Source of the DNA: Bacteroidales bacterium
GTDB lineage: Bacteria > Bacteroidota > Bacteroidia > Bacteroidales > WCHB1-69
Assembly (NCBI GenBank): GCA_017962275.1
Contig: JAGCVQ010000053.1
Location: 1 to 51,375, forward strand
DNA: 51,375 nucleotides
Direction of reading: 5' to 3'
The position numbers were made by a program, and so were the translations under genes. A model generated the notes under the pieces. That model searched no databases and was not told where the DNA came from. It saw only the letters and a list, made by a program, of their open reading frames with translations. This document shows, in pieces, positions 5,162-51,375 of the stretch (position 1 is its first letter; every line of letters starts with the position of its first letter).

Positions 5162-5209
5162 AACCGTGTAACCCTTTAACCCTTTAACCGTGTAACCCTT
5201 TAACCTTAA
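5162..5209. repeat. 8-bp tandem array (AACCNTNT family), 6 units
   Basis: Successive units AACCGTGT, AACCCTTT, AACCCTTT, AACCGTGT, AACCCTTT, AACCTTAA. It ends 4 bases before the ATG of the nucleosidase gene. The reverse complement is the same family as the GGTTACAC/GGTTAGAG arrays at 38737 and 45473. Confidence 0.9.
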
Positions 5210-5213
5210 AAGA

Positions 5214-5801
5214 ATGAACATCGCCTTATTCGCAGCCGTTGAGGAAGAAGTCCTCAACATCAAAGAGAAAGTGCACCTTTGCGGCATCGGCCGCGAGAAC
5301 GCCACGAACGCCATGCTGCAGTTCATGCAGCAGCATCAGAACGAAGATTTCACCATCATGAACATCGGCACCGCCGGCGCGCACAGCGTCCCCGTGGGGT
5401 CGTTGATCCGCGTCAACGAAATCGTTTCCGGCGGCAGAGCCTTCCTTGACCACCCGATGCTCCTCGACCGCCTGCCCATCGACACGCCCGATGCCGCCGA
5501 CGGCAAGCTCTTCTCCTCCGACTGTTTCGTCTCGCCGCACGTCTATTCCGCCGATTTCCTGCAAAGTCTGACGGAGAAGGCCGACTGCTTCGACATGGAG
5601 TCCTCCGCCCTCTACACCATCGCCAAGCACTTCGGCAAGCCCTACGTCTCCTTCAAGATCGTCTCCGACCACCTCGACGTCGATCTCGCCACCTGGCAGA
5701 CCCGCGTCCACGAGCTATCCCCGCGCCTTTGCGAGTTCGCGCTGAAGACGATCAAGGAGCTTGAAACGATTGAGCCTGTGACCATTATTAAGCAACCCTA
5801 A
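5214..5801 (+). CDS. MTA/SAH nucleosidase-like protein (compact)
   Basis: A 195-residue member of the purine nucleoside phosphorylase / MTA-SAH nucleosidase superfamily, which hydrolyses 5'-methylthioadenosine or S-adenosylhomocysteine to adenine plus a thioribose compound. Visible landmarks are the N-terminal AAVEEEV (the catalytic acid region, cf. Glu12 of E. coli MtnN), NIGTAGAHSVPVGSLIRV for the Gly-rich substrate strand, FDMESSALY (Met-Glu pair for ribose) and KIVSDHLD (catalytic Asp). It is shorter than the usual roughly 230 residues because the segment after the first strand is reduced. It sits 12 bases before agmatinase and is probably cotranscribed. Substrate preference is not certain. 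Confidence 0.75.
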   Translation: MNIALFAAVEEEVLNIKEKVHLCGIGRENATNAMLQFMQQHQNEDFTIMNIGTAGAHSVPVGSLIRVNEIVSGGRAFLDHPMLLDRLPIDTPDAADGKLFSSDCFVSPHVYSADFLQSLTEKADCFDMESSALYTIAKHFGKPYVSFKIVSDHLDVDLATWQTRVHELSPRLCEFALKTIKELETIEPVTIIKQP

Positions 5802-5813
5802 ACCCTTAACCCC

Positions 5814-6674
5814 ATGATTAAGACCATGCCCCACTTCCTCGATATGGACGACGAGCGTCTGTACGAATTGGATAACGCCAGATACGTCATCCTCGGCGTG
5901 CCCTACGACGGCACCAGCACCTTCGTGAAGGGTGCCGACAAAGGCCCGCAAGCCATCCTTGATGCCTCCGACAGTCTGGAACTATACGATATCCAGTACC
6001 AGTACGAGGCCTGGCGGGCCGGCATCCACACCGACCATCACGACTACGACCTCCGAACTCCCGAGTTGATGGTAAACTCGGTCTATCGGCGGATGCGCCA
6101 TTTCATGGACCTTGGCAAGCGCCCGATTCTCATCGGCGGCGAACATTCCGTCTCCGTGGGTGCGATCCAGGCGATGGCCGAAACCTATCCCAATCTCTCG
6201 GTGCTGCAGATCGACGCGCACGCCGACCTTCGCGACAGCTACCACGACTCGCCCTACAACCACGCCTGCGTGATGCGCCGGGCCCAAGAGATGACCCGCG
6301 TGGTGCAGGTCGGCATCCGGAATGTCTGTTCCGAAGAACTTCCCAACGTGGTGCCGGAGAACATCTTCTACGCGCATCTCATCCATAATCAGGAAGAATG
6401 GATGGAGAAAGCCCTAAACCGCCTCACCGACAACGTCTATATCACCGTCGATTTGGACGGCTTCGACCCGTCGATCCTGCCCGCCACCGGCACCCCGCTG
6501 CCCGGCGGTCTGCAATGGTACCCCACCCTCTCATTCTTGGAGAAGGTGTTCCGCAACAAAAACGTCACCGGCTTCGACGTGGTGGAACTTTGCCCGCAAG
6601 CGGACGACAAAGTTTCCGACGTGCTCGCCGCAACGTTGGTGTACAAAATGATAACGATGTGGGAGATGTGTTAA
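5814..6674 (+). CDS. speB: Agmatinase / ureohydrolase family enzyme
   Basis: A 286-residue arginase-superfamily protein. The manganese-ligand motifs are all present: GGEHSVSVG, QIDAHADLRDSY and VDLDGFDPSILPATGTP. Agmatinase converts agmatine to putrescine plus urea. Length and motif spacing fit SpeB better than arginase. The upstream nucleosidase, which handles methylthioadenosine from polyamine synthesis, gives a loosely consistent polyamine/SAM-recycling context, though the pairing is only suggestive. An arginine decarboxylase gene is not in view. Confidence 0.88.
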   Translation: MIKTMPHFLDMDDERLYELDNARYVILGVPYDGTSTFVKGADKGPQAILDASDSLELYDIQYQYEAWRAGIHTDHHDYDLRTPELMVNSVYRRMRHFMDLGKRPILIGGEHSVSVGAIQAMAETYPNLSVLQIDAHADLRDSYHDSPYNHACVMRRAQEMTRVVQVGIRNVCSEELPNVVPENIFYAHLIHNQEEWMEKALNRLTDNVYITVDLDGFDPSILPATGTPLPGGLQWYPTLSFLEKVFRNKNVTGFDVVELCPQADDKVSDVLAATLVYKMITMWEMC

Positions 6675-6709
6675 GGGAAAAGGGGAAAGGAAAAAGGCAA
6701 AAGGCAACA
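6675..6709. repeat. 7-bp tandem array (GGCAAAA family), 5 units
   Basis: GGGAAAA, GGGGAAA, GGAAAAA, GGCAAAA, GGCAACA in exact 7-bp phase, beginning at the very next base after the speB stop codon. Confidence 0.85.
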
Positions 6710-6734
6710 GAGAAGTCACCTCAATATTAAAAAT

Positions 6735-6816
6735 ATTCCCTGAGCAGTCCCGAAGGGACAAGACGCACGAAGTGCTAATAACCCCACACGAGCGACGGAG
6801 GAGCGCAGTGTGGGGG
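6735..6816. repeat. Modular dispersed element, copy 1
   Basis: The left module ATTCCCTGAGCAGTCCCG-AAGGGACAAGACGCACGAA is followed by a hairpin CCCCACAC (6782-6789) / GTGTGGGG (6808-6815) with the loop GAGCGACGGAGGAGCGCA. The left module recurs near 16801, 28705 and 50774. The same hairpin recurs at 16849-16882. Confidence 0.8.
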
Positions 6817-6818
6817 CT

Positions 6819-6846
6819 GTAGCGATGCAAAATCATGCATCACTAC
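6819..6846. repeat. 28-bp GTAG...CTAC palindrome
   Basis: GTAGCGATGCA and TGCATCACTAC arms around AAATCA, with one mismatch. It has the same length and end sequence as the perfect palindrome at 17623-17650. Its right end contains the stop codon of the T9SS cargo gene (6845-6843). Confidence 0.75.
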
Positions 6847-11404: not shown

Positions 11405-12181
11405 ATGAAACTCAAGAAAGAAAAAGTAATGTTAGTGGACAGCAGCGACAACCTGCGCCGCGTGATTAAGGATTACCTGGAAATGTCCGGATACGAGGTC
11501 ACCGACTTCCGTGACGGCACCGAAGCGGACGCCCAGTTCAACAAGGGTCTCTTCGACATCTGCATCATCGACGTGGCGTTGCGTCACTACGACGGTTTCA
11601 GACTGCTGAACAGTATGCGCAAGGTCGACAAGAACGTGCCCATCATCGTGCTCTCTTCCGCCTCTTCGAAGGAAGACCGCATCAAGGGGTTCAACATGGG
11701 ATGTGACGACTACGTGGCGAAGCCCTTCAGCATCGAGGAGCTCGGACTGCGTATGCAAGCCATCCTGCGCCGCTGCAAGGCCACGGCCCCGCGTGAGTAC
11801 ATCAGCGAGGACGAGACCATCAAGTTTGGCAACTTCATGCTCAACTACACCGAGATGCAGCTCATCCACCCGAAGGTCACCCGCACGCTCACCCGCAAGG
11901 AGTGCGAACTGCTCAAGCTGATGCTCGACCACAAGAACAAGCTCGTTCCCCGCGAGATCATCCTCCGCGAGGTATGGGGCGAGGACGACAACACCACCTC
12001 CCGCAGCATGGACGTGTTCATGACCAAACTGCGCGGCTACCTCATCATCGACAGCGAGGACAAGGTGCTGCCCAAAGACCCCGGCCAACGCAAGACCAAA
12101 TATGCCGACGGCTACCAGCCCCTCGTCGAAATCTGCAATATCCACGGTACCGGTTTCATGTTGCGAGTATTGGATAAATAA
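11405..12181 (+). CDS. OmpR/RprY-type response regulator
   Basis: A 258-residue two-domain regulator. The receiver domain spans residues 8-122, with VDSSD acidic pocket, CIIDVALRHYDG phosphoacceptor Asp, LSSASS (Ser/Thr) and VAKPFS (Lys). The winged-helix DNA-binding domain spans residues about 140-255, with LTRKECELLKLM, VPREIILREVWG, RSMDVFMTKLR and the final hairpin IHGTGFMLRV. No histidine kinase is adjacent. The segment between the recognition helix and the wing carries about 25 extra residues (roughly 215-240, DSEDKVLPKDPGQRKTK...) compared with typical family members. pyrF follows after 22 bases. Confidence 0.9.
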   Translation: MKLKKEKVMLVDSSDNLRRVIKDYLEMSGYEVTDFRDGTEADAQFNKGLFDICIIDVALRHYDGFRLLNSMRKVDKNVPIIVLSSASSKEDRIKGFNMGCDDYVAKPFSIEELGLRMQAILRRCKATAPREYISEDETIKFGNFMLNYTEMQLIHPKVTRTLTRKECELLKLMLDHKNKLVPREIILREVWGEDDNTTSRSMDVFMTKLRGYLIIDSEDKVLPKDPGQRKTKYADGYQPLVEICNIHGTGFMLRVLDK

Positions 12182-12203
12182 TTTATTTGCTTTTGTGATA
12201 AAC

Positions 12204-13067
12204 ATGTCAAATATCGATAAATTGTATGCAAACGTGGCCCAGAACGGTCACGTTTGTGTTGGTTTGGACACCGACGTGTCCTACCTCCCGGAACATCTGG
12301 CCCAGCAATTCCCGAACACTGAGGACGGGCTTTTCGCCTTCAACAAGGCCATCATCGACAGCACGCTGGACGTGAGCGCTTGCTACAAGGTGCAGATCGC
12401 CTATTACGAGGCATACGGCATGGCCGGCCTTCGCGCCTACGCCCGCACGCTCGCCTACCTGCGCGAGAAGAATGCCGTCATCATTGCCGACATCAAGCGC
12501 GGCGACATCGCCAAGACAGCTGAAATGTACGCCAAGGCGCACTTCACCGGCGAATTCGAGGCCGATTTCATCACCCTCAGCCCGTACATGGGATTAGACA
12601 GCCTCTCCCCGTATCTTCCTTACATCAAGGAGAACGGCAAAGGCGTGTTCGTGCTCATCCGCACCTCCAACGAGGGCGCGAAGGACATCGAGTATCTGCC
12701 CACGGAGAACGGCAAGCGCGTCTATCACGTGGTCGGCGAGAAACTGCAGCAACTCGGCAAGGACTTCATCGGCGAATGCGGTTACTCAGCCATCGGCGGC
12801 GTGATGGGATGCACCCATCCGGACGAGGCCGCCGAGATCCGCAGCATGCTGAACACCACCTTCTTCCTGATTCCGGGTTACGGTGCCCAAGGCGGCAAGG
12901 CGGAAGACATCGCCAAGTACCTGCACAACGGCAACGGCGGCGTGGTGAACTCCTCCCGCGGCATCCTCCTCGCCTACCGCAAGCAGGAGAACGGCGCCGC
13001 AAACTTCGCCGACTGTGCCCGCGCCGAAGCCATCCGCATGCGCGATGATATCCTCAAATGGTTATAG
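12204..13067 (+). CDS. pyrF: Orotidine 5'-phosphate decarboxylase
   Basis: A 287-residue enzyme of the type 2 OMP decarboxylase group, catalysing the last step of UMP synthesis. Key parts are VCVGLDTD near the start, the catalytic IADIKRGDIAKTA (D-x-K-x-x-D signature), DFITLSPYMGLDSL, and the phosphate-binding end FLIPGYGAQGGKAED. The start at ATG 12204 is preferred to the longer frame, which would overlap the regulator gene by 80 bases. The last two codons and the stop fall inside a GGTTATT heptamer array (13060-13087), so the C-terminal Trp-Leu is encoded by repeat DNA. Confidence 0.93.
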   Translation: MSNIDKLYANVAQNGHVCVGLDTDVSYLPEHLAQQFPNTEDGLFAFNKAIIDSTLDVSACYKVQIAYYEAYGMAGLRAYARTLAYLREKNAVIIADIKRGDIAKTAEMYAKAHFTGEFEADFITLSPYMGLDSLSPYLPYIKENGKGVFVLIRTSNEGAKDIEYLPTENGKRVYHVVGEKLQQLGKDFIGECGYSAIGGVMGCTHPDEAAEIRSMLNTTFFLIPGYGAQGGKAEDIAKYLHNGNGGVVNSSRGILLAYRKQENGAANFADCARAEAIRMRDDILKWL

Positions 13068-13087
13068 GTTATTGGTTATTGGTTATT
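13060..13087. repeat. 7-bp tandem array (GGTTATT family), 4 units
   Basis: GGTTATA, then GGTTATT three times. The first unit supplies the end of pyrF, including part of its stop codon. Confidence 0.85.
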
Positions 13088-13136
13088 GAAGCTGACAATT
13101 CAAGGAGCAGAAACAACGTCAGAGTTAATTGTCACT

Positions 13137-13171
13137 CATAATTCTTAATTCTACATTCATAATTCTTAATT
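13137..13171. repeat. 7-bp tandem array (CATAATT/CTTAATT), 5 units
   Basis: CATAATT, CTTAATT, CTACATT, CATAATT, CTTAATT in phase, ending 5 bases before the rseP ATG. Confidence 0.8.
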
Positions 13172-14565: not shown

Positions 14566-14566
14566 T

Positions 14567-14673
14567 GACGTGAGACGTGAGACGTAAGACGTAAGACGTA
14601 AGATATCACTCGTCTCACATCATACGTCTCACATCATACGTCTCACGTCATACGTCTCACATCATACGTCATT
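14567..14673. repeat. 7-bp tandem arrays in inverted arms (GACGTGA / CGTCTCA)
   Basis: The left arm (14567-14608) has six units GACGTGA, GACGTGA, GACGTAA x3, GATATCA, starting 1 base after the rseP stop. After two bases (CT) the right arm (14611-14673) has nine units CGTCTCA, CATCATA and variants. The arms are largely reverse complements and could fold into a long imperfect hairpin before nadA. Confidence 0.92.
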
Positions 14674-14685
14674 CCAAATTAAAAT

Positions 14686-15606: not shown

Positions 15607-15609
15607 CCC

Positions 15610-15637
15610 CCTAACCCATAAACCATAACCCATACAC
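15610..15637. repeat. 7-bp tandem array (CATAACC family), 4 units
   Basis: CCTAACC, CATAAAC, CATAACC, CATACAC, located between nadA and the phosphofructokinase gene (3 bases after the nadA stop, 8 before the ATG). Confidence 0.75.
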
Positions 15638-15645
15638 CCACGAAT

Positions 15646-16755: not shown

Positions 16756-16778
16756 CAGTTAGTAGTTAGTAGTTACGG
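16751..16778. repeat. 7-bp tandem array (GTTAGCA family), 4 units
   Basis: ATTAGCA, GTTAGTA, GTTAGTA, GTTACGG. The first unit contains the pfkA stop codon. It runs into ACGGGCGACCCCAAT, which also follows the related array at 50659. Confidence 0.85.
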
Positions 16779-16800
16779 GCGACCCCAATATATTAAAACA

Positions 16801-16883
16801 GCTTCCTTGAGCAATCCCGGAGGGACAAGAGCTCGGTAGAGCAATTAACCCCACACAAGCGACGGAGGAGCGCAGTGTGGGGC
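16801..16883. repeat. Modular dispersed element, copy 2
   Basis: The left module GCTTCCTTGAGCAATCCCGG-AGGGACAAGAGCTCGGTAGA is followed by the CCCCACAC (16849-16856) / GTGTGGGG (16875-16882) hairpin with nearly the same loop as copy 1. It ends about 30 bases before the sirtuin start. Confidence 0.85.
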
Positions 16884-20802: not shown

Positions 20803-20873
20803 CTGCTTCAATTTATTAAACGGGTTATTTAACGGCGACAATGGGAAATTATTATAATTTGAGAGAGAAAAAA

Positions 20874-20943
20874 GTTCCAGGTTCCAGGTTCAAAGTTCCA
20901 GGTTCCAGGTTCAAAGACTTGGAACTTGGAACTTTGAACTTGG
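20874..20943. repeat. 7-bp tandem arrays in inverted arms (GTTCCAG/GTTCAAA and AACTTGG)
   Basis: The left arm has GTTCCAG x2, GTTCAAA, GTTCCAG x2, GTTCAAA (20874-20915). The right arm has GACTTGG, AACTTGG, AACTTTG, AACTTGG (20916-20943). The arms are reverse complements and can form a hairpin between the divergent porX and GLPGLI/DUF4412-like genes. Confidence 0.92.
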
Positions 20944-20985
20944 AACTAATATTTCTCATCCATTTAAACCATTTGATAAAAAATG

Positions 20986-23487: not shown

Positions 23488-23520
23488 ATAATACTCTGAA
23501 TTGACTTTGATATTGCTTTA

Positions 23521-23604
23521 CCTTTTCCCTATTCCCTTTTGCCTCTTCCCAATTGCCTATTGCCTTTTGCCTTTTGCCTATTGCCTTTTGCCTTTTCCCT
23601 ACTC
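23521..23604. repeat. 7-bp tandem array (CCTTTTG family), 12 units
   Basis: Twelve successive heptamers such as CCTTTTC, CCTATTC, CCTTTTG, CCTCTTC, CCAATTG, ending in CCTACTC, with no phase break. The last unit contains the Omp28 stop codon (23601-23599). The reverse complement is the GGCAAAA family of 6675 and 49963. Confidence 0.95.
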
Positions 23605-27113: not shown

Positions 27114-27148
27114 ATTTCGCCTGGGGAGTCGCTACCTAAATCTTCAAA

Positions 27149-27169
27149 TCAATTTTCAATTATCAATTC
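27149..27169. repeat. 7-bp tandem array (TCAATTA family), 3 units
   Basis: TCAATTT, TCAATTA, TCAATTC. It partly complements the ATTGATA side at 27093, giving an inverted pair 35 bases apart. It lies just upstream of the malic enzyme -7 element. Confidence 0.7.
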
Positions 27170-27207: not shown

Positions 27208-28653
27208 ATGAATAGTATTGAACATCTCGACGACCTTTTCCCGAAGTCCTTTGACGAGGCGCAGAAAGCGAAAGCAAAAACACTGTTCTACAAGCAGTTG
27301 TCACTTTTTGCGCACGAATATTACCGCGGCAAGATGGGCACGCTGCCCAAAGTGCCGATCGAGAGTCTGAACTGGTTCAACGCTTGGTACACGCCGGGCG
27401 TTTCCGCCATTTCCACCACTATCCGCGACGACAACAACCGCTCCTTCCAGCTCAGCAACCGATCGAACATGGTGGCAGTGGTCAGCGACAGCACCCGCGT
27501 TTTGGGCGATGGCGACTGCACGCCTCCCGGCGGTCTCGGCGTGATGGAAGGCAAGGCGCTCATCATGAAATACCTGGGCGGCATCGACGCCACCGCGCTC
27601 TGCATCGACAGCCGCGACGAGAAAGGCGAGCACCAGCCCGACAAGATCATCGACTTCGTGAAGATGGTGCAGCCCAGTTTCGGGGCCATCAACCTCGAAG
27701 ACATCTCGCAGCCCAACTGCTTCCGCGTGCTCGACGTGCTGCGTGAGGCATGCGACATCCCCGTCTGGCACGACGACGCGCAAGGCACCGCCTGCGTGAC
27801 GCTCGCGGGTGTACTGAACGCCCTCAAGATCGTGGGCAAACGCCTTGACAACGTGCGGATCGTGCTCTACGGCGCAGGTGCCGCCAACAGCAGCATCGCC
27901 CGCCTGATGATCCAAGACGGCGCGAAACCCGAAAACATCATCATGTTCGACAAAGACGGCACTCTCCATAGAAACCGTGCCGATTACGAAAAAGATACGC
28001 GATTCTATCCGCAGTGGCGACTCTGCCAGATTACCAACCCGCAATGCGTTACCACTCCCGAAGAGGCTTTCAAAGGGGCGGACGTTCTGGTGGCCCTCTC
28101 CCACCCCGGTCCCGACACCATCAAGCCCGAATGGATTTCGCTGATGGCGGAGAAGGCTATCGTGTTCGCCTGCGCCAACCCCGTGCCGGAAATCTACCCG
28201 CACGCCGCCAAGGCCGCCGGCGCCTACATCGTGGCCACTGGTCGCGGCGACTTCCCCAACCAAGTCAACAACTCCGTCTGCTTCCCCTCCATCCTGAAAG
28301 GCACACTGCTGGTCGCGGCGCGCAAGATCACCGACGAGATGGCCGTCTGCGCCGCGCACGCCATCGCCGACTTTGCCGAGCGGCAGGGCATCAGCCCCGA
28401 CCGCATCATGCCCACGATGATGGACAGCGAGCTCTTCCCCGAAGTGGCCGCCGCCGTGGGCGAATGTGCCGTCAAGGCAGGTCTCGCCCGCAACCCGCTC
28501 ACCCGCGACGAAATCTACAAACTTGCCAAACGCGACATCGATGAAACCCATCGCGTGATGGATCTGCTTGTCGAACAAGGCATTATCGAGAAATTCCCGG
28601 AAGCGGAAGTGAAGCGGATACTGGACGAGGTGGTGAGAACAATTAGTAATTAG
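27208..28653 (+). CDS. NAD(P)-dependent malic enzyme
   Basis: A 481-residue malic enzyme, which decarboxylates malate to pyruvate and reduces NAD(P). Visible signatures: AWYTPGVSAIST, VMEGKALIMKYLGGIDA, VWHDDAQGTACVTLAGVLNAL (metal/catalytic region), the nucleotide-binding VLYGAGAANSSIARLM and ATGRGDFPNQVNNSVCFP. It lacks the phosphotransacetylase-like C-terminal domain of the long Bacteroides form. The start at ATG 27208 follows the promoter; the 8-residue-longer frame overlaps the -7 element. The last three codons and the stop (28642-28653) are made of GTTAGCA-type heptamers. Confidence 0.88.
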   Translation: MNSIEHLDDLFPKSFDEAQKAKAKTLFYKQLSLFAHEYYRGKMGTLPKVPIESLNWFNAWYTPGVSAISTTIRDDNNRSFQLSNRSNMVAVVSDSTRVLGDGDCTPPGGLGVMEGKALIMKYLGGIDATALCIDSRDEKGEHQPDKIIDFVKMVQPSFGAINLEDISQPNCFRVLDVLREACDIPVWHDDAQGTACVTLAGVLNALKIVGKRLDNVRIVLYGAGAANSSIARLMIQDGAKPENIIMFDKDGTLHRNRADYEKDTRFYPQWRLCQITNPQCVTTPEEAFKGADVLVALSHPGPDTIKPEWISLMAEKAIVFACANPVPEIYPHAAKAAGAYIVATGRGDFPNQVNNSVCFPSILKGTLLVAARKITDEMAVCAAHAIADFAERQGISPDRIMPTMMDSELFPEVAAAVGECAVKAGLARNPLTRDEIYKLAKRDIDETHRVMDLLVEQGIIEKFPEAEVKRILDEVVRTISN

Positions 28654-28676
28654 CAGTTAGCAGTTAGCAGTTGTAA
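28642..28676. repeat. 7-bp tandem array (GTTAGCA family), 5 units
   Basis: ATTAGTA, ATTAGCA, GTTAGCA, GTTAGCA, GTTGTAA. The first twelve bases are the end of the malic enzyme reading frame. Confidence 0.88.
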
Positions 28677-38736: not shown

Positions 38737-38768
38737 GGTTACACGGTTAGAGGGTTACACGGTTAGAG
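38737..38768. repeat. 8-bp tandem array (GGTTACAC/GGTTAGAG), 4 units
   Basis: GGTTACAC, GGTTAGAG, GGTTACAC, GGTTAGAG, starting 4 bases after the TonB-like stop codon. Confidence 0.9.
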
Positions 38769-38810
38769 GTATATGGTTGTGGGGCCTTCGGTTAATTGTC
38801 AAAACTATTT

Positions 38811-42172: not shown

Positions 42173-42192
42173 AATCAGCGGTTTTTAAGGAT

Positions 42193-42201
42193 GCAAAGGT
42201 A
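42193..42201 (-). promoter_or_regulatory. -7 element for the Gre-like gene
   Basis: The minus strand reads TACCTTTGC, 20 bases before the ATG. Confidence 0.6.
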
Positions 42202-42233
42202 CATTTTTTTCTTTTATCTATTCGTAATTTATG

Positions 42234-42242
42234 TACTTTTGC
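42234..42242 (+). promoter_or_regulatory. -7 element for the repeat-tailed envelope gene
   Basis: Reads TACTTTTGC, 14 bases before ATG 42257. It is divergent from the Gre-like promoter. Confidence 0.65.
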
Positions 42243-42256
42243 CGCCGAATCACCAA

Positions 42257-43828: not shown

Positions 43829-43861
43829 TCCGATGTTCACAAATACTTGACATTTCATAAA

Positions 43862-45472
43862 ATGACGAAGCACTTATTTGCTCATTATAACGAGATTTTC
43901 CCGAAATTCTGGGACGAACCCGCGCTGACCGACTACAACGGCACCGACAGTTACACGTTCCGGGAAGTCGCGGAAGAGGTAGCCCGATTACGAAACTATT
44001 TTCAGGATATGGGCATCCGGCAGGGCGACAAAATCGCGCTTTGCGGCCGCAACTGCGCCAAATGGGCCATCTCCTATTTGGCCATTGCCTCCTACGGCGC
44101 TGTCATTGTCTCCGTGCTGCACGAATTTTCCGGAGAGGACATCGAGGCGCTGATCAACCATTCCGAGGCGCGCATGCTCATCGTGGGTCCTTACGTCTGG
44201 AAGAACATGACCGCCGAACACATGCCCGGATTGGAGGCTATCGTATCGCTCACCGACTTCTCCCTCATCGCCACGAAGCGCGAGGGCGTGGAAATCTCCC
44301 GCGAGCCCATAACCGTTCCGAGAAACAACCACATCTTCACGGTGCGAGACATCGATGACCTGTTGCTCATCAATTATACATCCGGTTCCACGGGCGACCC
44401 GAAAGGGGTGATGCTGTCTTACAGAAGTCTCTCCTCCAACATCGAAACGGGTCTGCAATTCCTGCCCCCGGGAGGGCGTCAGAACGTGGTCTCCATGCTG
44501 CCGTTGGCGCACATGTACGGACAGTTGGCCGAATTTCTCTATCCGTTGGCCGATGGTTGCCACATCCATTTTCTGACTAAATCGCCCACCCCGACCCTGC
44601 TGATGAAGGCTTTCGCGGATGTGAAACCCTACATTATCGTCACCGTGCCACTCGTGATTGAAAAAATCTGCAAGCGCGCCGTGATGCCTGCGCTCGAAAA
44701 GCCCGCTGTGCAACGGTTGCTCAAATACCCTGTACTGCGCAAGTTCGTGGTCAACACCATCCACAAAAAACTGATGAAAGCCTTCGGCGGACAACTCAAA
44801 TACTTTATCGTGGGCGGTGCGGCCATAAATCCTGATGTGGAGAAGCTGCTGCTGGAGGTCAAATTCCCGCTCATTGTAGGTTACGGCATGACGGAATGCG
44901 GTCCGCTCATCGGCGGCTGCTACGTCCACGAGTTCGTGCCCCGTTCCGCCGGACACATCCTCCCTCGCAACGAGATCCGCATCGATTCCAAAGACCCCTA
45001 CAATGAGGTCGGCGAAATCCTCGTGCGCGGCGAACACGTCATGTTGGGCTACTACAAAAACGACGAGGCCACCCGCGCCACCTTCACCGACGACGGCTGG
45101 ATGCGCACCGGCGACCTCGGCCTCATCGACAAAAAAAACAACATCTTCATCAAAGGCCGCAACAAGACCATGATTCTCGGCGCATCCGGACAGAACATCT
45201 ACCCCGAGGAGATCGAAGGCAAGCTCAACGACATGGAAGGCGTGGTGGAATCTGTGGTGGTGGAACGCGAGGGCAAGCTCATCGCGCTCGTCTTCCCCGA
45301 CTACGAAGGCGAACTCCGTTTCCGCCAGACCATTCCCGAACTGATGAAGGAAAACCTCCGCAAACTCAATGAGAAGCTTCCCAAATACGCCCAAATCTTC
45401 AATATCGAGCTGAAAGAAGACGAGTTCGAGAAGACTCCGAAAAGGTCGATCAAGCGGTTCCTGTATAAGTAG
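43862..45472 (+). CDS. AMP-forming acyl-CoA ligase
   Basis: A 536-residue adenylate-forming enzyme. Adenylation core motifs: INYTSGSTGDPKGVMLSYRS (P-loop, spanning about residues 170-189), GYGMTECGPLIGG, MLGYYKND and the hinge region WMRTGDLGLIDKKNNIFIKG. The C-terminal Lys region is EFEKTPKRSIKRFLYK. Members activate fatty or aromatic acids with ATP and CoA. The substrate is not deducible. Start at ATG 43862 (the longer frame uses TTG). An octamer array starts at the base after the stop. Confidence 0.88.
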   Translation: MTKHLFAHYNEIFPKFWDEPALTDYNGTDSYTFREVAEEVARLRNYFQDMGIRQGDKIALCGRNCAKWAISYLAIASYGAVIVSVLHEFSGEDIEALINHSEARMLIVGPYVWKNMTAEHMPGLEAIVSLTDFSLIATKREGVEISREPITVPRNNHIFTVRDIDDLLLINYTSGSTGDPKGVMLSYRSLSSNIETGLQFLPPGGRQNVVSMLPLAHMYGQLAEFLYPLADGCHIHFLTKSPTPTLLMKAFADVKPYIIVTVPLVIEKICKRAVMPALEKPAVQRLLKYPVLRKFVVNTIHKKLMKAFGGQLKYFIVGGAAINPDVEKLLLEVKFPLIVGYGMTECGPLIGGCYVHEFVPRSAGHILPRNEIRIDSKDPYNEVGEILVRGEHVMLGYYKNDEATRATFTDDGWMRTGDLGLIDKKNNIFIKGRNKTMILGASGQNIYPEEIEGKLNDMEGVVESVVVEREGKLIALVFPDYEGELRFRQTIPELMKENLRKLNEKLPKYAQIFNIELKEDEFEKTPKRSIKRFLYK

Positions 45473-45527: not shown

Positions 45528-45977
45528 ATGAACAAGACAGAACAATACGAATCCCTCCTCCCGCAAGTGAAAGCGGTGATGGACAGCAGTGTGGATGTCA
45601 TCGCGAACATGGCGAACATGGCTGCGATGTTGCACGAAACTTTCGGATTCTGGTGGACCGGTTTCTACAGAGTCATCGGCAACGAACTGGTTCTCGGTCC
45701 CTTCCAAGGTCCGCTCGCGTGCACGCGCATCGCCTACGGGCGCGGGGTTTGCGGCACCGCATGGAAGGAACGCCGCACCGTGGTGGTACCAGACGTGGAG
45801 GAATTCCCCGGACACATCGCCTGCTCCTCCGCCTCCCGCAGCGAAATCGTCGTACCCGTCTTCCAAAACGGCGAAATCACCGCCGTACTCGACATCGACA
45901 GCGACAAAACAGGGACATTCGATGCTACCGATGCCACCCACCTTGAACAGTTAGTGCGGATGCTGTATGATTTTTGA
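45528..45977 (+). CDS. msrC: Free methionine-(R)-sulfoxide reductase (GAF domain)
   Basis: A 149-residue single GAF-domain protein reducing free methionine-R-sulfoxide. The fold-defining stretches are FWWTGFYRVIGNELVLGPFQ, ACTRIAYGRGVCGTAWKE and PGHIACSSASRSEIVVPVFQ, with three Cys matching the catalytic and resolving residues of the family. A conserved end, AVLDIDSDKTGTFD, closes the GAF domain. The stop codon sits at the start of a GACGTGT heptamer array. Confidence 0.9.
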   Translation: MNKTEQYESLLPQVKAVMDSSVDVIANMANMAAMLHETFGFWWTGFYRVIGNELVLGPFQGPLACTRIAYGRGVCGTAWKERRTVVVPDVEEFPGHIACSSASRSEIVVPVFQNGEITAVLDIDSDKTGTFDATDATHLEQLVRMLYDF

Positions 45978-46045
45978 CGTGTGACGTGTGATGTATGATG
46001 TATGACGTGTGACGTGTGATTTATGACTTATGACTTTTGATTTAT
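45976..46045. repeat. 7-bp tandem array (GACGTGT/GATTTAT), 10 units
   Basis: GACGTGT x2, GATGTAT x2, GACGTGT x2, GATTTAT, GACTTAT, GACTTTT, GATTTAT in unbroken phase. Its first two bases are the last two of the msrC stop codon. Same GACGTNN family as the left arm at 14567. Confidence 0.93.
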
Positions 46046-46062
46046 TGTATCTTGTGCTTTTC

Positions 46063-46090
46063 ACAAATCACAAATCACAAATCACAAAAT
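46063..46090. repeat. 7-bp tandem array (ACAAATC), 4 units
   Basis: ACAAATC x3, ACAAAAT. It complements the GATTTAT-type units at 46018-46045, so the two arrays form an inverted pair. It ends 24 bases before the rplY -7 element. Confidence 0.85.
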
Positions 46091-46114
46091 CGCCGAGTCT
46101 GTCAAAAAATTTTG

Positions 46115-46123
46115 TACTTTTGC
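46115..46123 (+). promoter_or_regulatory. -7 element for rplY
   Basis: Reads TACTTTTGC, 38 bases before the ATG at 46162. Confidence 0.7.
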
Positions 46124-46161
46124 CGCCGATTTTAAAAACACCTAATTAATTAAATAACAGT

Positions 46162-46749
46162 ATGAAATCAGTATCTATTAGCGGTTCTCTGAGAGAGAAC
46201 GTAGGGAAAAAAGATGCAAAAGCCCAACGCAATCAGGGCATGATTCCGTGCGTGATTTACGGCGGAAAGGATCAGAAAATGTTCGTGGTTGACGAGCGTC
46301 AATTCAAAGACCTGCTCTACTCACCCGAGGTGAGATATGCAGAAGTGAACATCAACGGCGACGTCCGTAAGGCCATCGTTCAAGAGACTCAGTTCCACGC
46401 CATCACCGACAGACTGCTGCATGTCGATTTCCTGGAAGTCGTGGACGGCAAGCCCATCACCATCGAAATCCCCTTCAAAGTGAAAGGCACCTCCCCCGGC
46501 GTCCTGAAGGGCGGTCTGCTCAAAAAGCGCGTGCGTAAGATCAAAGTCCGCGGCCTTCTGGAGAACATTCCCGAGGAAATCACCGCCGACATCTCCAACC
46601 TCGAAATCAACGACGTGACCAAGATCAGCGACATCCACCTCGACAGCCTCGAGATTGTGGACAACCCCAACAAGGTGGTCATCGCCGTCGTCCCGACCCG
46701 TGGTTCCGCTGCTGCCGCCACCGAGGAAACCACCGAGGAAGAGGCATAA
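46162..46749 (+). CDS. rplY: 50S ribosomal protein L25 (general stress protein Ctc type)
   Basis: A 195-residue long-form L25, binding 5S rRNA. The N-terminal L25 domain has SVSISGSLRENVGKKDAKAQ and GMIPCVIYGGKDQKMFVV, then ETQFHAITDRLLHVDFLEV. The C-terminal TL5 domain (about residues 95-180) has LLENIPEEITADISNLEIND. The acidic tail (ATEETTEEEA) is normal for this phylum. It is followed by a strong terminator. Confidence 0.95.
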   Translation: MKSVSISGSLRENVGKKDAKAQRNQGMIPCVIYGGKDQKMFVVDERQFKDLLYSPEVRYAEVNINGDVRKAIVQETQFHAITDRLLHVDFLEVVDGKPITIEIPFKVKGTSPGVLKGGLLKKRVRKIKVRGLLENIPEEITADISNLEINDVTKISDIHLDSLEIVDNPNKVVIAVVPTRGSAAAATEETTEEEA

Positions 46750-48692: not shown

Positions 48693-48906
48693 TTGGTATG
48701 GTTTTAATTTCAGGCGGCAAAAAGACAACTTTTTTCTTAAAAAATCTTAAAAATGTGATATTAAGCATGTTCGGGTGGACAAAAACATTCATTCGGGGAC
48801 GAAATGCGACATGAAGGGACAAAATTTCCAGGCAGAAGTAAGGATGCATTTCATCCCCGCACCGTATTGATTGTCGTTCGCTTAAAGAGAGAATCAAAAA
48901 AATATG

Positions 48907-48915
48907 TACTTTTGC
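48907..48915 (+). promoter_or_regulatory. -7 element for the LytTR regulator gene
   Basis: Reads TACTTTTGC. It overlaps the upstream in-frame ATG at 48904 and therefore fixes the start at 48934. Confidence 0.65.
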
Positions 48916-48933
48916 CGACCAAATCTCAATTTG

Positions 48934-49956
48934 ATGTTGAACAAGATCATACCGGACTATTACACCAACAAGGACAATATCATCTTCTATTTGATATTCG
49001 TCTTCTTTTTCTCGTTAGGATTCGTCAACCTGTTCACTCCATTCCAAGGGGCGTGGTACAACATACAACATTACACACGGGCGCAACTCTTTACGGACAC
49101 GCTGATCATGGTCGCGGGCGGCACACTCATTCTCGCCATCAGCCGCATCATCCTGTACTATGCCCATAAGAAAAAGCCAATCAACTATTTGCAATATTTT
49201 TCCTGGATGGTGGTTGAAGTATTCTTCATCGCCCTGATGTATGCCATCATCGTGCGATATGTGGTAGACGACGCCCGCGATTTCTCCGAAATCTTCACCC
49301 GCGCCGTCATCTTCGTGCCTACCATCATTGTCATCCCGACCGTCATCTCGCACCTCTACATCAGCTCACGCTACAAGGACGAGAGAATCGAGGAATTGGA
49401 ATCCCAACAGGAACAGGCGAAACCTGTCACAACCCCGCCCCAAGACGAGGAATTCTCCATTTCGGAGGAGTTCTCCGGCGACGAATTCATCCTCGACAAC
49501 CACCTGACCTCCTCGGTCGAAAACCAACCCGTTGAAAAACAGTCCATTGAAGAGCACAAGCCAGAGTCTTCCCCCGAACCGTCGGCACCTCCCGCCAGCA
49601 AAATCATCAACTTTTTCGACGAGAAGGATGAACTGCAACTCTCCCTGCGCCTCGACCATATCTACTTTATCGAGTCTGCGGAGAATTATGTCAATGTATA
49701 TTACAGGAACAAGGAGAACACGGAGCGGTTCACCCTGCGCAGTTCGTTGAAGAAACAGCAGGAAAAGCTCGGAAAATACGGATTCATCCGCTGCCACCGA
49801 AGCTACCTAGTCAACTTCGACAATATCTTATTGTTACGGAAAGACAAAAACGGTCCCTACCTCGACTTCGGGGCGCCGAACCTGCCGCAGATTCCGGTCT
49901 CGAAGACCTACTTGGACTCCGTCACGGCATATTTCATCAGCAACAGCGACGATTGA
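48934..49956 (+). CDS. Membrane-anchored LytTR transcription factor
   Basis: A 340-residue protein with four predicted membrane helices (about 17-155: IIFYLIFVFFFSLGFVNLF, LIMVAGGTLILAISRIILYY, FSWMVVEVFFIALMYAII, AVIFVPTIIVIPTVISHLYI). A charged linker (about 160-235) leads to a C-terminal LytTR DNA-binding domain (about 240-340; IYFIESAENYVNVYYRNKEN, FIRCHRSYLVNFDNILLLRK). It would read a signal in the membrane and act directly on DNA. The signal and target genes are unknown. No kinase is adjacent. Confidence 0.88.
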   Translation: MLNKIIPDYYTNKDNIIFYLIFVFFFSLGFVNLFTPFQGAWYNIQHYTRAQLFTDTLIMVAGGTLILAISRIILYYAHKKKPINYLQYFSWMVVEVFFIALMYAIIVRYVVDDARDFSEIFTRAVIFVPTIIVIPTVISHLYISSRYKDERIEELESQQEQAKPVTTPPQDEEFSISEEFSGDEFILDNHLTSSVENQPVEKQSIEEHKPESSPEPSAPPASKIINFFDEKDELQLSLRLDHIYFIESAENYVNVYYRNKENTERFTLRSSLKKQQEKLGKYGFIRCHRSYLVNFDNILLLRKDKNGPYLDFGAPNLPQIPVSKTYLDSVTAYFISNSDD

Positions 49957-49962
49957 TTTTAA

Positions 49963-50011
49963 GGCAAAAGGCAAGAGGCAAAAGGCAAGAGGCATAAGAC
50001 AATAGGAAATA
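49963..50011. repeat. 7-bp tandem array (GGCAAAA family), 7 units
   Basis: GGCAAAA, GGCAAGA, GGCAAAA, GGCAAGA, GGCATAA, GACAATA, GGAAATA in phase, starting 6 bases after the LytTR gene stop. Same family as 6675 and the reverse complement of 23521. Confidence 0.9.
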
Positions 50012-50028: not shown

Positions 50029-50670
50029 ATGGCAAGAAAATCAGATAAATACAAGTTCATTGTCGATTATTTTTCGGAAGCACAGCCCGATGTGGAATCC
50101 GAACTGAACTATAACAGTCCCTACGAGCTGTTGGTGGCCACGATGCTCGCCGCGCAGTGCACCGACAAACGCGTCAACATGGTGACACCCGCGCTTTTTG
50201 CCGCCTACCCTACCGTTTCCGACTTGGCGAAAGCCACCGAAGAAGAGGTTCTATCGTACATCAAATCAGTATCTTACCCGAACAGCAAGGCAAAACATTT
50301 AGTGCAGATGGCGCAGATGGCCGACAGCGATTTCGGTGGGGAGATTCCCTGCACGATGGAGGAGCTGACGAAGTTGCCGGGTGTAGGCCGCAAGACCGCC
50401 AACGTGGTGTTAGCCTTCGCCTTCGGGGAGGCCGCCATGCCCGTCGACACGCACGTCTTCCGCGTCTCGCACCGTCTTGGGCTCGTCCCCGACAGTGCCA
50501 AAACCCCGGATGCCGTCGAGAAAGAGCTGGTCAAGCACTTCCCGAAAGAGTACATCTCCCGCGCCCACCACTGGCTCCTGCTCCACGGCCGCTACGTCTG
50601 CACCGCCCGCAAGCCGCACTGCGAAGGGTGTGCCCTGGCGGGGATCTGCGAGGAGGGAGTTAGCAGTTAG
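50029..50670 (+). CDS. nth: Endonuclease III
   Basis: A 213-residue HhH-GPD DNA glycosylase/AP lyase for oxidised pyrimidines. Helix-hairpin-helix LPGVGRKTANVVLAFAF carries the catalytic Lys, and VDTHVFRVSHRLGL the catalytic Asp. The [4Fe-4S] cluster cysteines are in VCTARKPHCEGCALAGIC. The last four codons and stop (50659-50670, VSS then stop) come from the GTTAGCA array, so the terminal residues are encoded by repeat DNA. Confidence 0.95.
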   Translation: MARKSDKYKFIVDYFSEAQPDVESELNYNSPYELLVATMLAAQCTDKRVNMVTPALFAAYPTVSDLAKATEEEVLSYIKSVSYPNSKAKHLVQMAQMADSDFGGEIPCTMEELTKLPGVGRKTANVVLAFAFGEAAMPVDTHVFRVSHRLGLVPDSAKTPDAVEKELVKHFPKEYISRAHHWLLLHGRYVCTARKPHCEGCALAGICEEGVSS

Positions 50671-50707: not shown

Positions 50708-50720
50708 ACGGGCGACCCCA

Positions 50721-50762
50721 ATTCCCCTTCTCTTAGAAGGGGTGCCCGAAGGGCGGGGTAGT
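50721..50762. repeat. CCCCTTCT/AGAAGGGG hairpin-type repeat
   Basis: CCCCTTCTCTTAGAAGGGG (50724-50742), then GTGCCCGAAGGGCGGGGTAG. Stacked short inverted repeats of a kind frequent in Bacteroidota intergenic DNA. Confidence 0.65.
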
Positions 50763-50773
50763 AATATAAAAAT

Positions 50774-50844
50774 GCTTCCTTGAGCAGCCCCGTTAGGGGC
50801 AAGAGCTTGGTAGCCAGGGGTGAGCGAAGCGCAACCCTTGGGCA
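50774..50844. repeat. Modular dispersed element, copy 4
   Basis: GCTTCCTTGAGCAGCCCCG-TTAGGGGCAAGAGCTTGGTAG, followed by a hairpin with arms CCAGGGGT / AACCCTTGG around GAGCGAAGCGC. Left module as in copies 1-3, right hairpin different. Confidence 0.8.
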
Positions 50845-50874
50845 ATTAGGAACAAGCCACCCAATCGATACATT

Positions 50875-51315
50875 ATGGAATTAAACGACGAATATTTCAT
50901 GCGCATCGCCTTGAACGAGGCAGAAGACGCCTACACGGAGGGCGAGATCCCCGTGGGGGCGGTAGTGGTGCTGGACGATAAAGTTATCGCAAAAGGGCAC
51001 AACCTGACGGAGACACTGCACGACGTGACGGCCCACGCGGAGATGATGGCCATCACGGGAGCCGCCAACTCCTTAGGTGCCAAATACCTGCAAGACTGTA
51101 CCTTATACGTCACATTGGAGCCATGCCTCATGTGCGCCGGCGCCATCGCCCATGCGCAGGTGAAGACCCTCGTGTTCGGTGCCTCCGACCCCAAACGCGG
51201 CTACAGCGTCTATACCGACGGCAAATTCCCATCCAAAGCAGAGGTCCGGAAAGGCGTGCTGGAAGACGAATGTGCAGAACTTTTGAGAAAATTTTTCGCG
51301 GAACGTAGGAAGTAA
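50875..51315 (+). CDS. tadA: tRNA-specific adenosine deaminase TadA
   Basis: A 146-residue zinc deaminase of the cytidine deaminase fold, converting A34 of tRNA-Arg(ACG) to inosine. Zinc motif TAHAEMMAI (His and catalytic Glu) and EPCLMCAGAIAHAQ (two Cys); PVGAVVV and FGASDPKRGYSV are typical. An alternative is another cytosine/guanine deaminase of the same fold, but length and motif neighbours favour TadA. Confidence 0.9.
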   Translation: MELNDEYFMRIALNEAEDAYTEGEIPVGAVVVLDDKVIAKGHNLTETLHDVTAHAEMMAITGAANSLGAKYLQDCTLYVTLEPCLMCAGAIAHAQVKTLVFGASDPKRGYSVYTDGKFPSKAEVRKGVLEDECAELLRKFFAERRK

Positions 51316-51330
51316 CAGAAAAATATTTCC

Positions 51331-51339
51331 TATCTTTGC
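51331..51339 (+). promoter_or_regulatory. -7 element for a gene beyond the right edge
   Basis: Reads TATCTTTGC, 16 bases after the tadA stop, pointing out of the window. Confidence 0.55.
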
Positions 51340-51350
51340 CGCTTGTTTTT

Positions 51351-51375
51351 GAACTTTGAACTTTGAACTTTGAAC
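51351..51375. repeat. 7-bp tandem array (GAACTTT family), running off the edge
   Basis: GAACTTT x3 and GAAC, cut by the window end. It is the reverse complement of the GTTCAAA family (AAAGTTC phase) of 24522 and 20874, and again sits in a predicted 5' leader behind a -7 element. Confidence 0.85.

What the first reader, a model, noticed from the sequence alone, without database searches (positions are those of the whole stretch)
5162..51375. Intergenic short tandem arrays with an almost fixed 7-bp period but changing sequence
I count about two dozen arrays in 51 kb: 5162 (8-bp), 6675, 8755, 13060, 13137, 14567, 15610, 16751, 20874, 21793, 23521, 24522, 27093, 27149, 28642, 33027 (11-bp), 34001, 38737 (8-bp), 45473 (8-bp), 45976, 46063, 49963, 50659, 51351. 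In each the unit keeps exact phase through up to 12 copies, yet the unit differs between loci. A fixed length with free sequence is unlike a spreading transposon or a normal SSR, and suggests either a 7-nt step in the generating mechanism or a length-sensitive function. Heptanucleotide STRR repeats of cyanobacteria are the nearest known analogue; I know of no described counterpart with this gene-end bias.
Basis: seen in the sequence. Interest (0 to 1): 0.88.

Follow-up and report, generated by a model that had tools for sequence, protein, structure and literature searches.

The report
Heptamer arrays from S23/IVP elements
Seven-letter DNA repeats scattered between this bacterium's genes look like the paired ends, or leftover ends, of small elements carrying a gene for an enigmatic four-helix-bundle protein, which would link several unexplained repeat families in different bacteria.

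Summary
TRF finds 23 of 24 listed arrays. In 437 kb of the genome, 130 intergenic arrays have period 7, none in ten shuffles. The unit is not free: 155 arrays use 51 unit classes, 45 in one one-mismatch network.

New: a partner gene. PF05635 genes (S23/IVP four-helix-bundle protein; in all 24 same-genus genomes searched) sit between inverted arrays of such units: 102 of 103 testable non-core copies, against 30 of 481 control genes. Both arms carry the same word. The word follows IVP lineage (Mantel p=0.0002), and genomes with an IVP of a word hold more of that word. Arm periods are mostly 7/14, some 8, like the window. At two window gaps relatives carry an IVP element. Nostoc IVPs show the same design, three with the published TAACTGA word.

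Best reading: window arrays are IVP-less arms of S23/IVP elements. Word binding, RNase III trimming and the way of spreading are inferred. The nearest paper found reports heptamers beside one S23p ORF in Coxiella rRNA.

The parts
5161..5205 (.). 8-bp array TAACCCTT/TAACCGTG
   Evidence: TRF; one mismatch from the 8-bp arm word AAAAGGTT of IVPs L193/L199
6673..6704 (.). 7-bp array AAGGGAA, overlaps the stop of 5814-6674
   Evidence: TRF; equals an arm word of IVP L145
8755..8825 (.). 7-bp array CGTCTCA, 10 copies
   Evidence: TRF; one mismatch from arms of the IVP lineage YSFENLEVWKKSREL
13059..13088 (.). 7-bp array TGGTTAT at the stop of 12102-13067
   Evidence: TRF; equals arm word of IVPs L205/L207; unit replaced in several congeners
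13139..13171 (.). 7-bp array TAATTCT before the start of 13177-14565
   Evidence: TRF; one mismatch from IVP arm words
14567..14603 (.). 7-bp array GACGTAA/GACGTGA, left arm of an inverted pair
   Evidence: TRF; equals arm word of IVP L167
14611..14672 (.). array CGTCTCACATCATA (7/14), right arm of the inverted pair
   Evidence: TRF; inverted partner; RNA hairpin z -8.4 for 14560-14690
15608..15640 (.). 7-bp array CCCATAA
   Evidence: TRF; equals arm word of IVPs L205/L215
16752..16775 (.). 7-bp array TTAGTAG at the stop of 15646-16755; this gap holds an IVP element with AGTTAGT/AATTAGT-type arms in congeners G002 and G020
   Evidence: TRF; orthologous gap
20871..20916 (.). 7-bp array GTTCCAG/GTTCAAA, left arm
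   Evidence: TRF; word family of the own-genome IVP L179 arms; RNA hairpin z -9.5 for 20860-20960
20917..20947 (.). 7-bp array ACTTGGA/ACTTTGA, right arm (inverted)
   Evidence: TRF; equals an arm word of IVP L179
21793..21825 (.). degenerate 7-bp run GCCAATAGCTAACAGCC
   Evidence: read by eye, not reported by TRF; by eye resembles the TTGGCTATTAGCT arms of IVP lineage MRNFRNY
23517..23600 (.). 7-bp array TTTGCCT/TATTGCC, 12 copies
   Evidence: TRF; equals arm word of IVPs L141/L143/L144
24522..24578 (.). 7-bp array GTTCAAA, 8 copies
   Evidence: TRF; the GTTCAAA 2.5-mer occurs 52 times in the own genome; one mismatch from the TRF units of own IVP L179, whose arms also contain GTTCAAA
27091..27115 (.). 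7-bp array TAATGGA, left arm
   Evidence: TRF; one mismatch from IVP L187 arm units
27148..27168 (.). 7-bp array ATCAATT, right arm by eye
   Evidence: TRF; hairpin not better than chance, z -1.1
28650..28672 (.). 7-bp array TTAGCAG overlapping the stop of 27184-28653
   Evidence: TRF; equals arm word of IVPs L181 (own genome) and L234
34000..34042 (.). 7-bp array AGTTAGC, left arm
   Evidence: TRF; equals arm word of own-genome IVP L181
34045..34077 (.). 7-bp array AACTACT/AACTGCT, right arm (inverted)
   Evidence: TRF; RNA hairpin z -6.6 for 33990-34090
38737..38769 (.). 8-bp array GGTTACAC/GGTTAGAG
   Evidence: TRF; two mismatches from the 8-bp arms of IVPs L193/L199
45473..45526 (.). 8-bp array GGTTACAC at the stop of 43847-45472
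   Evidence: TRF; two mismatches from the same 8-bp IVP word
45975..46045 (.). 7-bp arrays TGACGTG/TATGACT at the stop of 45528-45977; the orthologous gap holds an IVP element with 8-bp GGTTAGAA arms in congeners G002 and G009
   Evidence: TRF; orthologous gap
46061..46088 (.). 7-bp array TCACAAA
   Evidence: TRF; equals arm word of IVPs L154/L168/L170; 45960-46100 does not fold better than chance (z +0.9)
49961..50006 (.). 7-bp array AAGGCAA after the stop of 48904-49956
   Evidence: TRF; equals arm word of IVPs L141/L143/L144
50658..50705 (.). 7-bp array AGTTAGC overlapping the stop of 50029-50670
   Evidence: TRF; equals arm word of own-genome IVP L181
51348..51375 (.). 7-bp array TTTGAAC at which the contig ends
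   Evidence: TRF; GTTCAAA word

Best explanation
The arrays are arms of S23/IVP elements, mostly IVP-less ('solo') arms. A complete element is a gene of about 120 codons for a four-helix-bundle protein (PF05635, the protein known from 23S rRNA intervening sequences and related to the Avd protein of diversity-generating retroelements). It is flanked by two inverted arrays of one short word, usually 7 bp and in some lineages 8. Shown: the inverted arms, the same word on both sides, the word following the protein lineage, genomes with an IVP of a word holding more of that word, presence or absence of elements at orthologous gene gaps, and strong RNA hairpins from some paired solo arrays. Inferred: the pentameric IVP ring recognises repeated copies of its own word in the hairpin stem, so a fixed word length and matching arms are kept while the word drifts. 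The array lengthens and shortens by slippage, and the hairpin lets the element sit between co-transcribed genes (RNase III trimming, as published for an rRNA intervening sequence). Elements and arms are lost and regained at gene ends, leaving solo arrays. How new copies are made is not known.
For: Inverted arms at 102 of 103 testable non-core IVP genes from 24 genomes against 30 of 481 control genes at score >=25, and 69 of 103 against 6 of 481 at >=42. Arms match within a locus (median 42) better than across loci (median 18; 95th percentile 48, because loci of one lineage share words). Two core PF05635 paralogs tested lack array arms, and the one armless copy, L284, lies about 0.5 kb from a reverse-transcriptase match. 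Word against protein distance: Mantel r=0.30, p=0.0002 on 49 cluster representatives. Word counts are higher in genomes with a fetched IVP of that word for all four words tried: p=0.0005, 0.0005, 0.014, 0.013 (counts). Own-genome IVPs L181 and L179 carry AGTTAGC and GTTCAAA/GTTCCAG arms; of five word families grouped by hand these two are the commonest in the whole sample (24 and 33 of 148), in stretches free of the GTTCAAA 2.5-mer (8 and 7 of 56) and in the window (5 and 4 of 22). 80 of 155 own arrays have exactly a word found at IVPs of other genomes, against mean 20.6 and maximum 45 in 100 letter shuffles. Arm periods in 99 genus IVPs: 7 in 67, 14 in 15, 8 in 9. Element present or absent at orthologous gaps, two of them in the window. 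45 of 123 orthologous IVP pairs have replaced words with arms still matching within each locus. Nostoc: 25 of 28 scored IVP loci above the 95th control percentile, period 7 in 22. RNA hairpins z -6.6 to -9.5 at three of five heptamer sites tested in the window.
Against: No IVP gene lies in the window contig. Some words are abundant where no IVP of that word was found: AGGCAAW in the own genome (50 hits) and G013 (24), AGTTAGY in G009 (106); this needs loss or missed genes. IVP word assignment used the fetched loci, not every listed match. The genomes are related, so the rank tests are not phylogenetically corrected. The rank correlation of word with protein distance is weak (0.13 over all pairs, 0.10 without near-identical pairs), because beyond moderate distance words are simply unrelated, and linked descent alone could give it. 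At one mismatch the vocabulary test does not discriminate (147 of 155 observed; shuffles mean 127.6, maximum 147). Within-locus arm match exceeds same-arm match between species in only 72 of 123 orthologous pairs, and arm substrings were chosen for matching. In a phylum-wide sample 17 of 30 IVP loci exceed the 95th control percentile and arms are degenerate. Of 42 adjacent solo array pairs 13 are inverted, 4 direct and 25 unrelated or ambiguous. Two of five heptamer sites do not fold well. The 11-bp arrays have no counterpart among IVP arms. No target-site duplication was established. The Coxiella paper concludes that S23p is probably not made in vivo there.
Confidence: 0.74

Rival explanations
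1. Arrays come first: gene-end hairpins (terminator-like or neutral) made of heptamer arrays are the resident structure, and IVP genes are passengers or homing inserts that enter arrays of a matching word.
For: Solo arrays far outnumber IVP genes (148 period-7 arrays in a 16% sample; 5 PF05635 matches in the own genome). Some paired arrays fold strongly. At the gap orthologous to window 16755-16915 an AGTTAG-type word is present with IVP (G002, G020) and without it (own genome, G017).
Against: Nearly every non-core IVP has arms (102 of 103), arms can be replaced together, and word follows protein lineage, so arms and gene seem to evolve as a unit. The other empty sites looked at hold other words.
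Confidence: 0.15
2. Plain polymerase slippage with an intrinsic preference for 7-nt units (the idea of Mrazek and co-workers 2007, known here only through PMC4679880 and PMC4692102), with no partner gene.
For: Heptanucleotides are reported as the commonest long simple repeats in most genomes. Some arm length differences between orthologues are 7, 14, 21 or 35 nt, though other gaps in the same alignments are not multiples of 7.
Against: Small shared vocabulary, inverted partner arms, tie to one gene family, and density differing from 0 to 5 per 10 kb among congeners.
Confidence: 0.07
3. REP/RAYT transposases (Y1_Tnp) spread the arrays together with the palindromic repeats seen beside them.
For: Y1_Tnp found in 23 of 24 genomes; palindromic repeats often lie next to arrays.
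Against: Arrays are tandem words without the REP palindrome; Y1_Tnp matches number 0 to 4 whatever the array density (compare, by eye); arrays flank IVP genes specifically. Flanks of Y1_Tnp genes were not scored.
Confidence: 0.03

Closest known systems
TAACTGA direct repeats of Beggiatoaceae, Cyanobacteria and five Bacteroidetes (MacGregor 2015, PMC4679880; abstract, introduction and the section on distribution in Cyanobacteria and Bacteroidetes read)
   Same: Intergenic tandem heptamers, strain-specific, indels mostly in 7-nt steps, also in Bacteroidetes. Three Nostoc IVP loci here carry tandem TAACTGA in their flanks.
   Different: That paper treats one word, stresses start-codon-proximal sites, proposes translational regulation, and in the parts read names no IVP gene. 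The window holds no TAACTGA tandem.
Nostoc and Xanthomonas heptamer arrays, and cyanobacterial STRR (PMC4692102; passages and sections 10 and 16 read; STRR papers not read)
   Same: Xanthomonas GGGAATC arrays are 89-93% intergenic, often inverted pairs (70 and 75 cases), with length differing between species. The solved IVP structure 2GSC is also from Xanthomonas campestris.
   Different: Studied as G-quadruplex candidates; the parts read make no link to an IVP gene. Xanthomonas IVP flanks were not examined here.
23S rRNA intervening sequence with S23p ORF of Coxiella burnetii (PMC4990558; passages read)
   Same: A PF05635-type ORF in an element called selfish, with three tandem heptamers (GACAGAT) upstream of the ORF in some strains, and RNase III excision.
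   Different: Lies inside 23S rRNA, with a decaying ORF. The elements here are intergenic, several per genome, with inverted arrays and many words.
Avd protein of diversity-generating retroelements (PMC10053308; passages read)
   Same: PF05635 resembles Avd in sequence and fold.
   Different: Avd works with a reverse transcriptase; PF00078 was found in only 7 of 24 genomes and not in the own genome.

Membership tests
S23/IVP intervening-sequence element | PF05635 ORF between complementary ends | tested here: met
   Met for 102 of 103 testable non-core copies in the genus; not met inside the window contig, which has no PF05635 match, so window arrays are at most arms
S23/IVP intervening-sequence element | Insertion inside 23S rRNA | tested here: not met
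   Window arrays lie between predicted protein genes and the IVP loci looked at in detail also do; 23S genes themselves were not searched
S23/IVP intervening-sequence element | RNase III excision of the hairpin | not testable with these tools
   Only folding was computed: three of five heptamer sites with z of -6.6 or lower
Heptanucleotide STRR | Tandem 7-nt units, intergenic, several words per genome | tested here: met
   130 intergenic period-7 arrays in 437 kb, 51 unit classes; the family definition is recalled
TAACTGA repeats | Word TAACTGA | tested here: not met
   No TAACTGA tandem in the window; present in Nostoc IVP loci L344, L345, L351 and absent from 237 kb of cyanobacterial control loci
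REP/RAYT system | Short palindromic repeat with a Y1 transposase | tested here: not met
   Arrays are tandem words; Y1_Tnp exists in the genome but the palindromes are separate repeats
MITE / insertion-sequence derivative | Terminal inverted repeats plus target-site duplication and a transposase | tested here: inconclusive
   Inverted arrays present; no target-site duplication recognised by eye in the occupied/empty comparisons; that PF05635 is not a known transposase is recalled
Diversity-generating retroelement | Reverse transcriptase with Avd | tested here: not met
   PF00078 in 7 of 24 genomes, none in the own genome

The most novel reading that the evidence does not exclude
S23/IVP four-helix-bundle genes with inverted word-array arms are a widespread class of selfish nucleic-acid element in Bacteroidota and Cyanobacteria. 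Each protein lineage reads its own 7- or 8-nt word, and the solo heptamer arrays of many genomes (STRR, TAACTGA, probably the Xanthomonas and Coxiella heptamers) are their non-autonomous progeny or relics.
Probability: 0.5. Interest if true: 0.93.

Novelty: new variant of a known kind. Interest (0 to 1): 0.85.

Why it matters
Heptamer repeats have been reported piecemeal in cyanobacteria, Beggiatoaceae, Bacteroidetes and Xanthomonas without an accepted explanation for the 7-nt unit, and the S23/IVP protein family is described as having no known function. Tying the two together gives each the missing half: a candidate ligand for an orphan protein family and a candidate protein for an orphan repeat. 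It predicts a testable protein-word code, explains a major 7 and a minor 8 within one framework, and would add a small selfish element to the known repertoire of bacterial genome architecture.

Tried and rejected
Free sequence / independent birth of each array: rejected because units are shared and networked.

RAYT/REP as the spreading agent: Y1_Tnp is present but its copy number does not follow array density (by eye).

Reverse transcriptase in trans as a general agent: PF00078 in only 7 of 24 genomes, so not required.

A purely vertical, static repeat: rejected, since units are replaced at orthologous gaps and elements are present or absent. Many IVP loci themselves are nonetheless old: 22 orthologous groups across species.

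Density of arrays against IVP copy number: compared only by eye; loosely positive, with exceptions such as G016 (11 IVP matches, 0.5 arrays per 10 kb) and G013 (5 matches, 4.2 per 10 kb). Not used as evidence.

11-bp arrays: no IVP arms of that unit; left unexplained.

First IVP flank print took all loci as + strand and so showed wrong ORFs for the minus-strand ones; corrected.

Rows dropped: one search scored 105 of 107 loci (L180 and L228 lack an upstream flank), and two core paralogs were set apart, leaving 103. Most of the low-scoring PF05635 matches (partial matches in ORFs of about 250 aa, and the long core paralogs beyond L182 and L198) were not fetched, and one search lists only part of its matches. 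One search used 77 elements with score >=25. In one search, L244 is the same place as L142 of the genus set (G040 and G005 look like one genome), and L260 and L268 are counted again. One search scored 28 of the matches listed (L347 fell out for want of flank). For the plasmids I took 10 of 38 records with a match.

Literature: all ten paper searches used, three of which listed only their best 20. Among listed papers the nearest link is PMC4990558 (heptamers beside one S23p ORF); none listed joins S23/IVP genes to inverted tandem arrays or to solo arrays, as far as titles, abstract starts and the passages read show. The library lacks most subscription journals. Mrazek 2007 was not read itself.


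Full report
Observation. TRF on the window finds arrays of period 7, 8 or 11 at 23 of the 24 listed positions. The window is contig C4 of a 2.77-Mb, 105-contig genome. A type IX secretion CHU_C domain among ten proteins scanned and the best nadA matches among rumen Bacteroidetes/Bacteroidales MAGs place it in the Bacteroidota. In 437 kb of this genome the period histogram has a sharp peak at 7 (148 of 247 arrays), with 18 each at 8 and 11. 130 period-7 arrays are intergenic, in 46 kb of intergenic DNA, and shuffles give none. The stretches were taken on contigs known to hold GTTCAAA matches, so that word is over-counted; the peak stays without that word family (115 arrays) and in 160 kb free of the GTTCAAA 2.5-mer (56 of 91 arrays).

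Vocabulary. The units are not free. 155 period-7 arrays (score >=36) fall in 51 classes, 45 of which join in one one-mismatch network; letter-shuffled units give networks of mean 17 and maximum 30. GTTCAAAGTTCAAAGTTC occurs 52 times in the own genome and 0 to 10 times in each of the other 39 genomes searched.

Turnover at one site. At the orthologous gap between window genes 12102-13067 and 13177-14565, congeners carry different units (GGTTATT/TAATTCT, GACTTAA, GGTTTCA/AATTACT, GACGTAA, TAACCAA) in the same place, mostly with the same period; G009 keeps the own units. The gap at 14565-14686 behaves alike. In several gaps a word follows the upstream stop and its reverse complement precedes the next start. 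Of 42 adjacent array pairs in the sample, 13 are inverted, 4 direct and 25 unrelated or ambiguous. Arrays at stops are purine-rich (median 0.58, n=43) and those at starts purine-poor (0.43, n=21), p=5e-5. Three of five heptamer sites tested in the window fold as RNA hairpins with z between -6.6 and -9.5; two do not, and the 11-bp site does (z -8.9).

The partner gene. In two congeners an inverted array pair at the gap orthologous to window 16755-16915 encloses a small four-helix-bundle gene. PF05635 matches are present in all 24 genus genomes searched, 2 to 18 per genome (the count includes core paralogs and partial matches), and in 0 of 14 control genomes. I scored the best local alignment of the upstream flank with the reverse complement of the downstream flank. 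First set: 30 loci, 29 above the 95th percentile of 482 control genes. Full set: 103 testable non-core IVP genes from 24 genomes, 102 at score 25 or more against 30 of 481 controls, and 69 at 42 or more against 6 of 481. The one exception, L284, lies about 0.5 kb from a reverse-transcriptase match, so it may be a retroelement Avd. Two core paralogs have no array arms (L182 scores 25 without array sequence, L198 18).

Word and protein. Arms match within a locus (median 42) better than across loci (median 18; 95th percentile 48, as loci of one lineage share words). Word similarity falls with protein distance: Mantel r=0.45 on 77 elements, and 0.30 with p=0.0002 on 49 cluster representatives; the rank correlation is weak (0.13, and 0.10 without near-identical pairs) because distant lineages simply have unrelated words. 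Many IVP loci are orthologous across species (22 groups). In 45 of 123 orthologous pairs the same arm differs strongly between species while arms still match within each locus (mean 0.62 of the maximum); over all pairs the within-locus match is the higher in 72 of 123. The arm substrings were chosen for matching, which favours the within-locus score. Examples in one group of nine: GACTTAG, GAACTATGACTAT, TTGGCTATTAGCT.

Arms and solo arrays share words. 80 of 155 own-genome arrays have exactly a word found in IVP arms of other genomes, against mean 20.6 and maximum 45 in 100 letter shuffles; at one mismatch the test does not discriminate (147 observed; shuffles mean 127.6, maximum 147). The own genome's IVPs L181 and L179 carry AGTTAGC and GTTCAAA/GTTCCAG arms. 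Of five word families grouped by hand these two are the commonest in the whole sample, in the GTTCAAA-free stretches (8 and 7 of 56) and in the window (5 and 4 of 22). Across 24 genomes, those with a fetched IVP of a word hold more of that word: AGTTAGY 32-357 against at most 106 (p=0.0005), GACTTRA 38-268 against at most 30 (p=0.0005), AGGCAAW 12-31 against at most 50 (p=0.014), GTTCAAA 52 and 3 against at most 10 (p=0.013) (counts; hits inside IVP arms were not taken out). Against this, the own genome has 50 AGGCAAW hits and G009 has 106 AGTTAGY hits with no IVP of that word found. The tests are not corrected for relatedness.

Why 7, and a minor 8. Of 99 genus IVP arm pairs with a clear period, 67 are best at 7, 15 at 14 and 9 at 8. 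Two IVPs with 8-bp arms (L193, L199: GGTTAGAA) are of one type, and the window's 8-bp words are one or two mismatches from theirs. The 11-bp arrays have no such partner.

Presence and absence. Window gap 45977-46162 corresponds to an IVP element with 8-bp arms in G002 and G009; window gap 16755-16915 to an IVP element in G002 and G020; two further own-genome gaps lack the IVP that G020 has. The empty gaps hold arrays, in three of the four cases of other words. No target-site duplication could be named.

Beyond the genus. Of 30 IVP loci from genomes of named Bacteroidota and cyanobacteria, 25 exceed the 95th and 22 the 99th percentile of 737 control genes (one locus, L244, repeats L142 of the genus). 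In 148 genomes of the phylum 116 have PF05635; of 30 best-scoring loci 17 exceed the 95th percentile and 14 the 99th, with degenerate arms. On cyanobacterial plasmids 9 of the 10 IVP loci taken show inverted short-word arms (no separate control in that call). In the genus of Nostoc FACHB-280, 11 of 11 genomes have PF05635 and 25 of 28 scored loci exceed the 95th percentile of 165 control genes, 22 with period 7. Three of them, which look like one orthologous group, carry tandem TAACTGA, absent from 237 kb of cyanobacterial control loci: the very word described by MacGregor.

Mechanism. The IVP relative 2GSC is a pentamer of four-helix bundles (sequence match; quaternary structure from passages of PMC4990558). 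Known for an rRNA intervening sequence: excision by RNase III, and heptamers beside the S23p ORF, whose product the authors think is not made in vivo. From these I infer that the IVP ring reads repeated words in the hairpin stem and that trimming makes insertion between genes tolerable. Binding, trimming and the copying step are not shown here.

Novelty. Heptamer arrays and S23/IVP elements are each known, and heptamers beside one S23p ORF have been noted in Coxiella. I found no listed paper that joins the repeat families to IVP genes in ten searches of an open-access library. I therefore rate the finding as a new variant of a known kind, with a plausible bolder reading given in the section on the most novel reading.

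Noticed in passing
window 6730-6815, 16790-16885, 28690-28760, 50760-50830: A dispersed palindromic repeat (CCCCACAC...GTGTGGGG with CTTGAGCAGTCCC..GGGACAAGAGCTCGGTAG) often lies next to the heptamer arrays; many copies in the genus. Y1_Tnp genes are present.
   Followed up: partly
window 33026-33137: 11-bp arrays GTTGGCAAGGG / CTTGCCAACCC in inverted arrangement with a very stable hairpin (z -8.9); period 11 is a second minor peak in the genome and has no counterpart among IVP arms.
   Followed up: partly
window 51348-51375: The contig ends inside a TTTGAAC array, so the assembly probably broke at the repeat.
   Followed up: no
window 43483-43788: In-frame coding repeat of 18/54 bp (GATGGCTCCGCAACCCCA) at the end of ORF 42191-43828.
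   Followed up: no
L294 and L297 (cyanobacterial plasmids): IVP genes lie inside CRISPR operons, between cas6 and cas4 and between cas10 and a Cmr3-family gene.
   Followed up: no
L284 (G023:C41): The only armless non-core IVP of the genus set lies about 0.5 kb from a reverse-transcriptase match, so it may be the Avd of a retroelement.
   Followed up: partly
L344, L345, L351 upstream flanks: The gene before these TAACTGA-armed Nostoc IVPs ends in what looks like a GFRVV-type variable-protein end of a diversity-generating retroelement (motif recalled, not tested).
   Followed up: no
G000:C78:27259-27573 (L182) and counterparts in other genomes: A longer, weaker PF05635 paralog seems to occur about once per genome; the two tested have no array arms.
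   Followed up: partly
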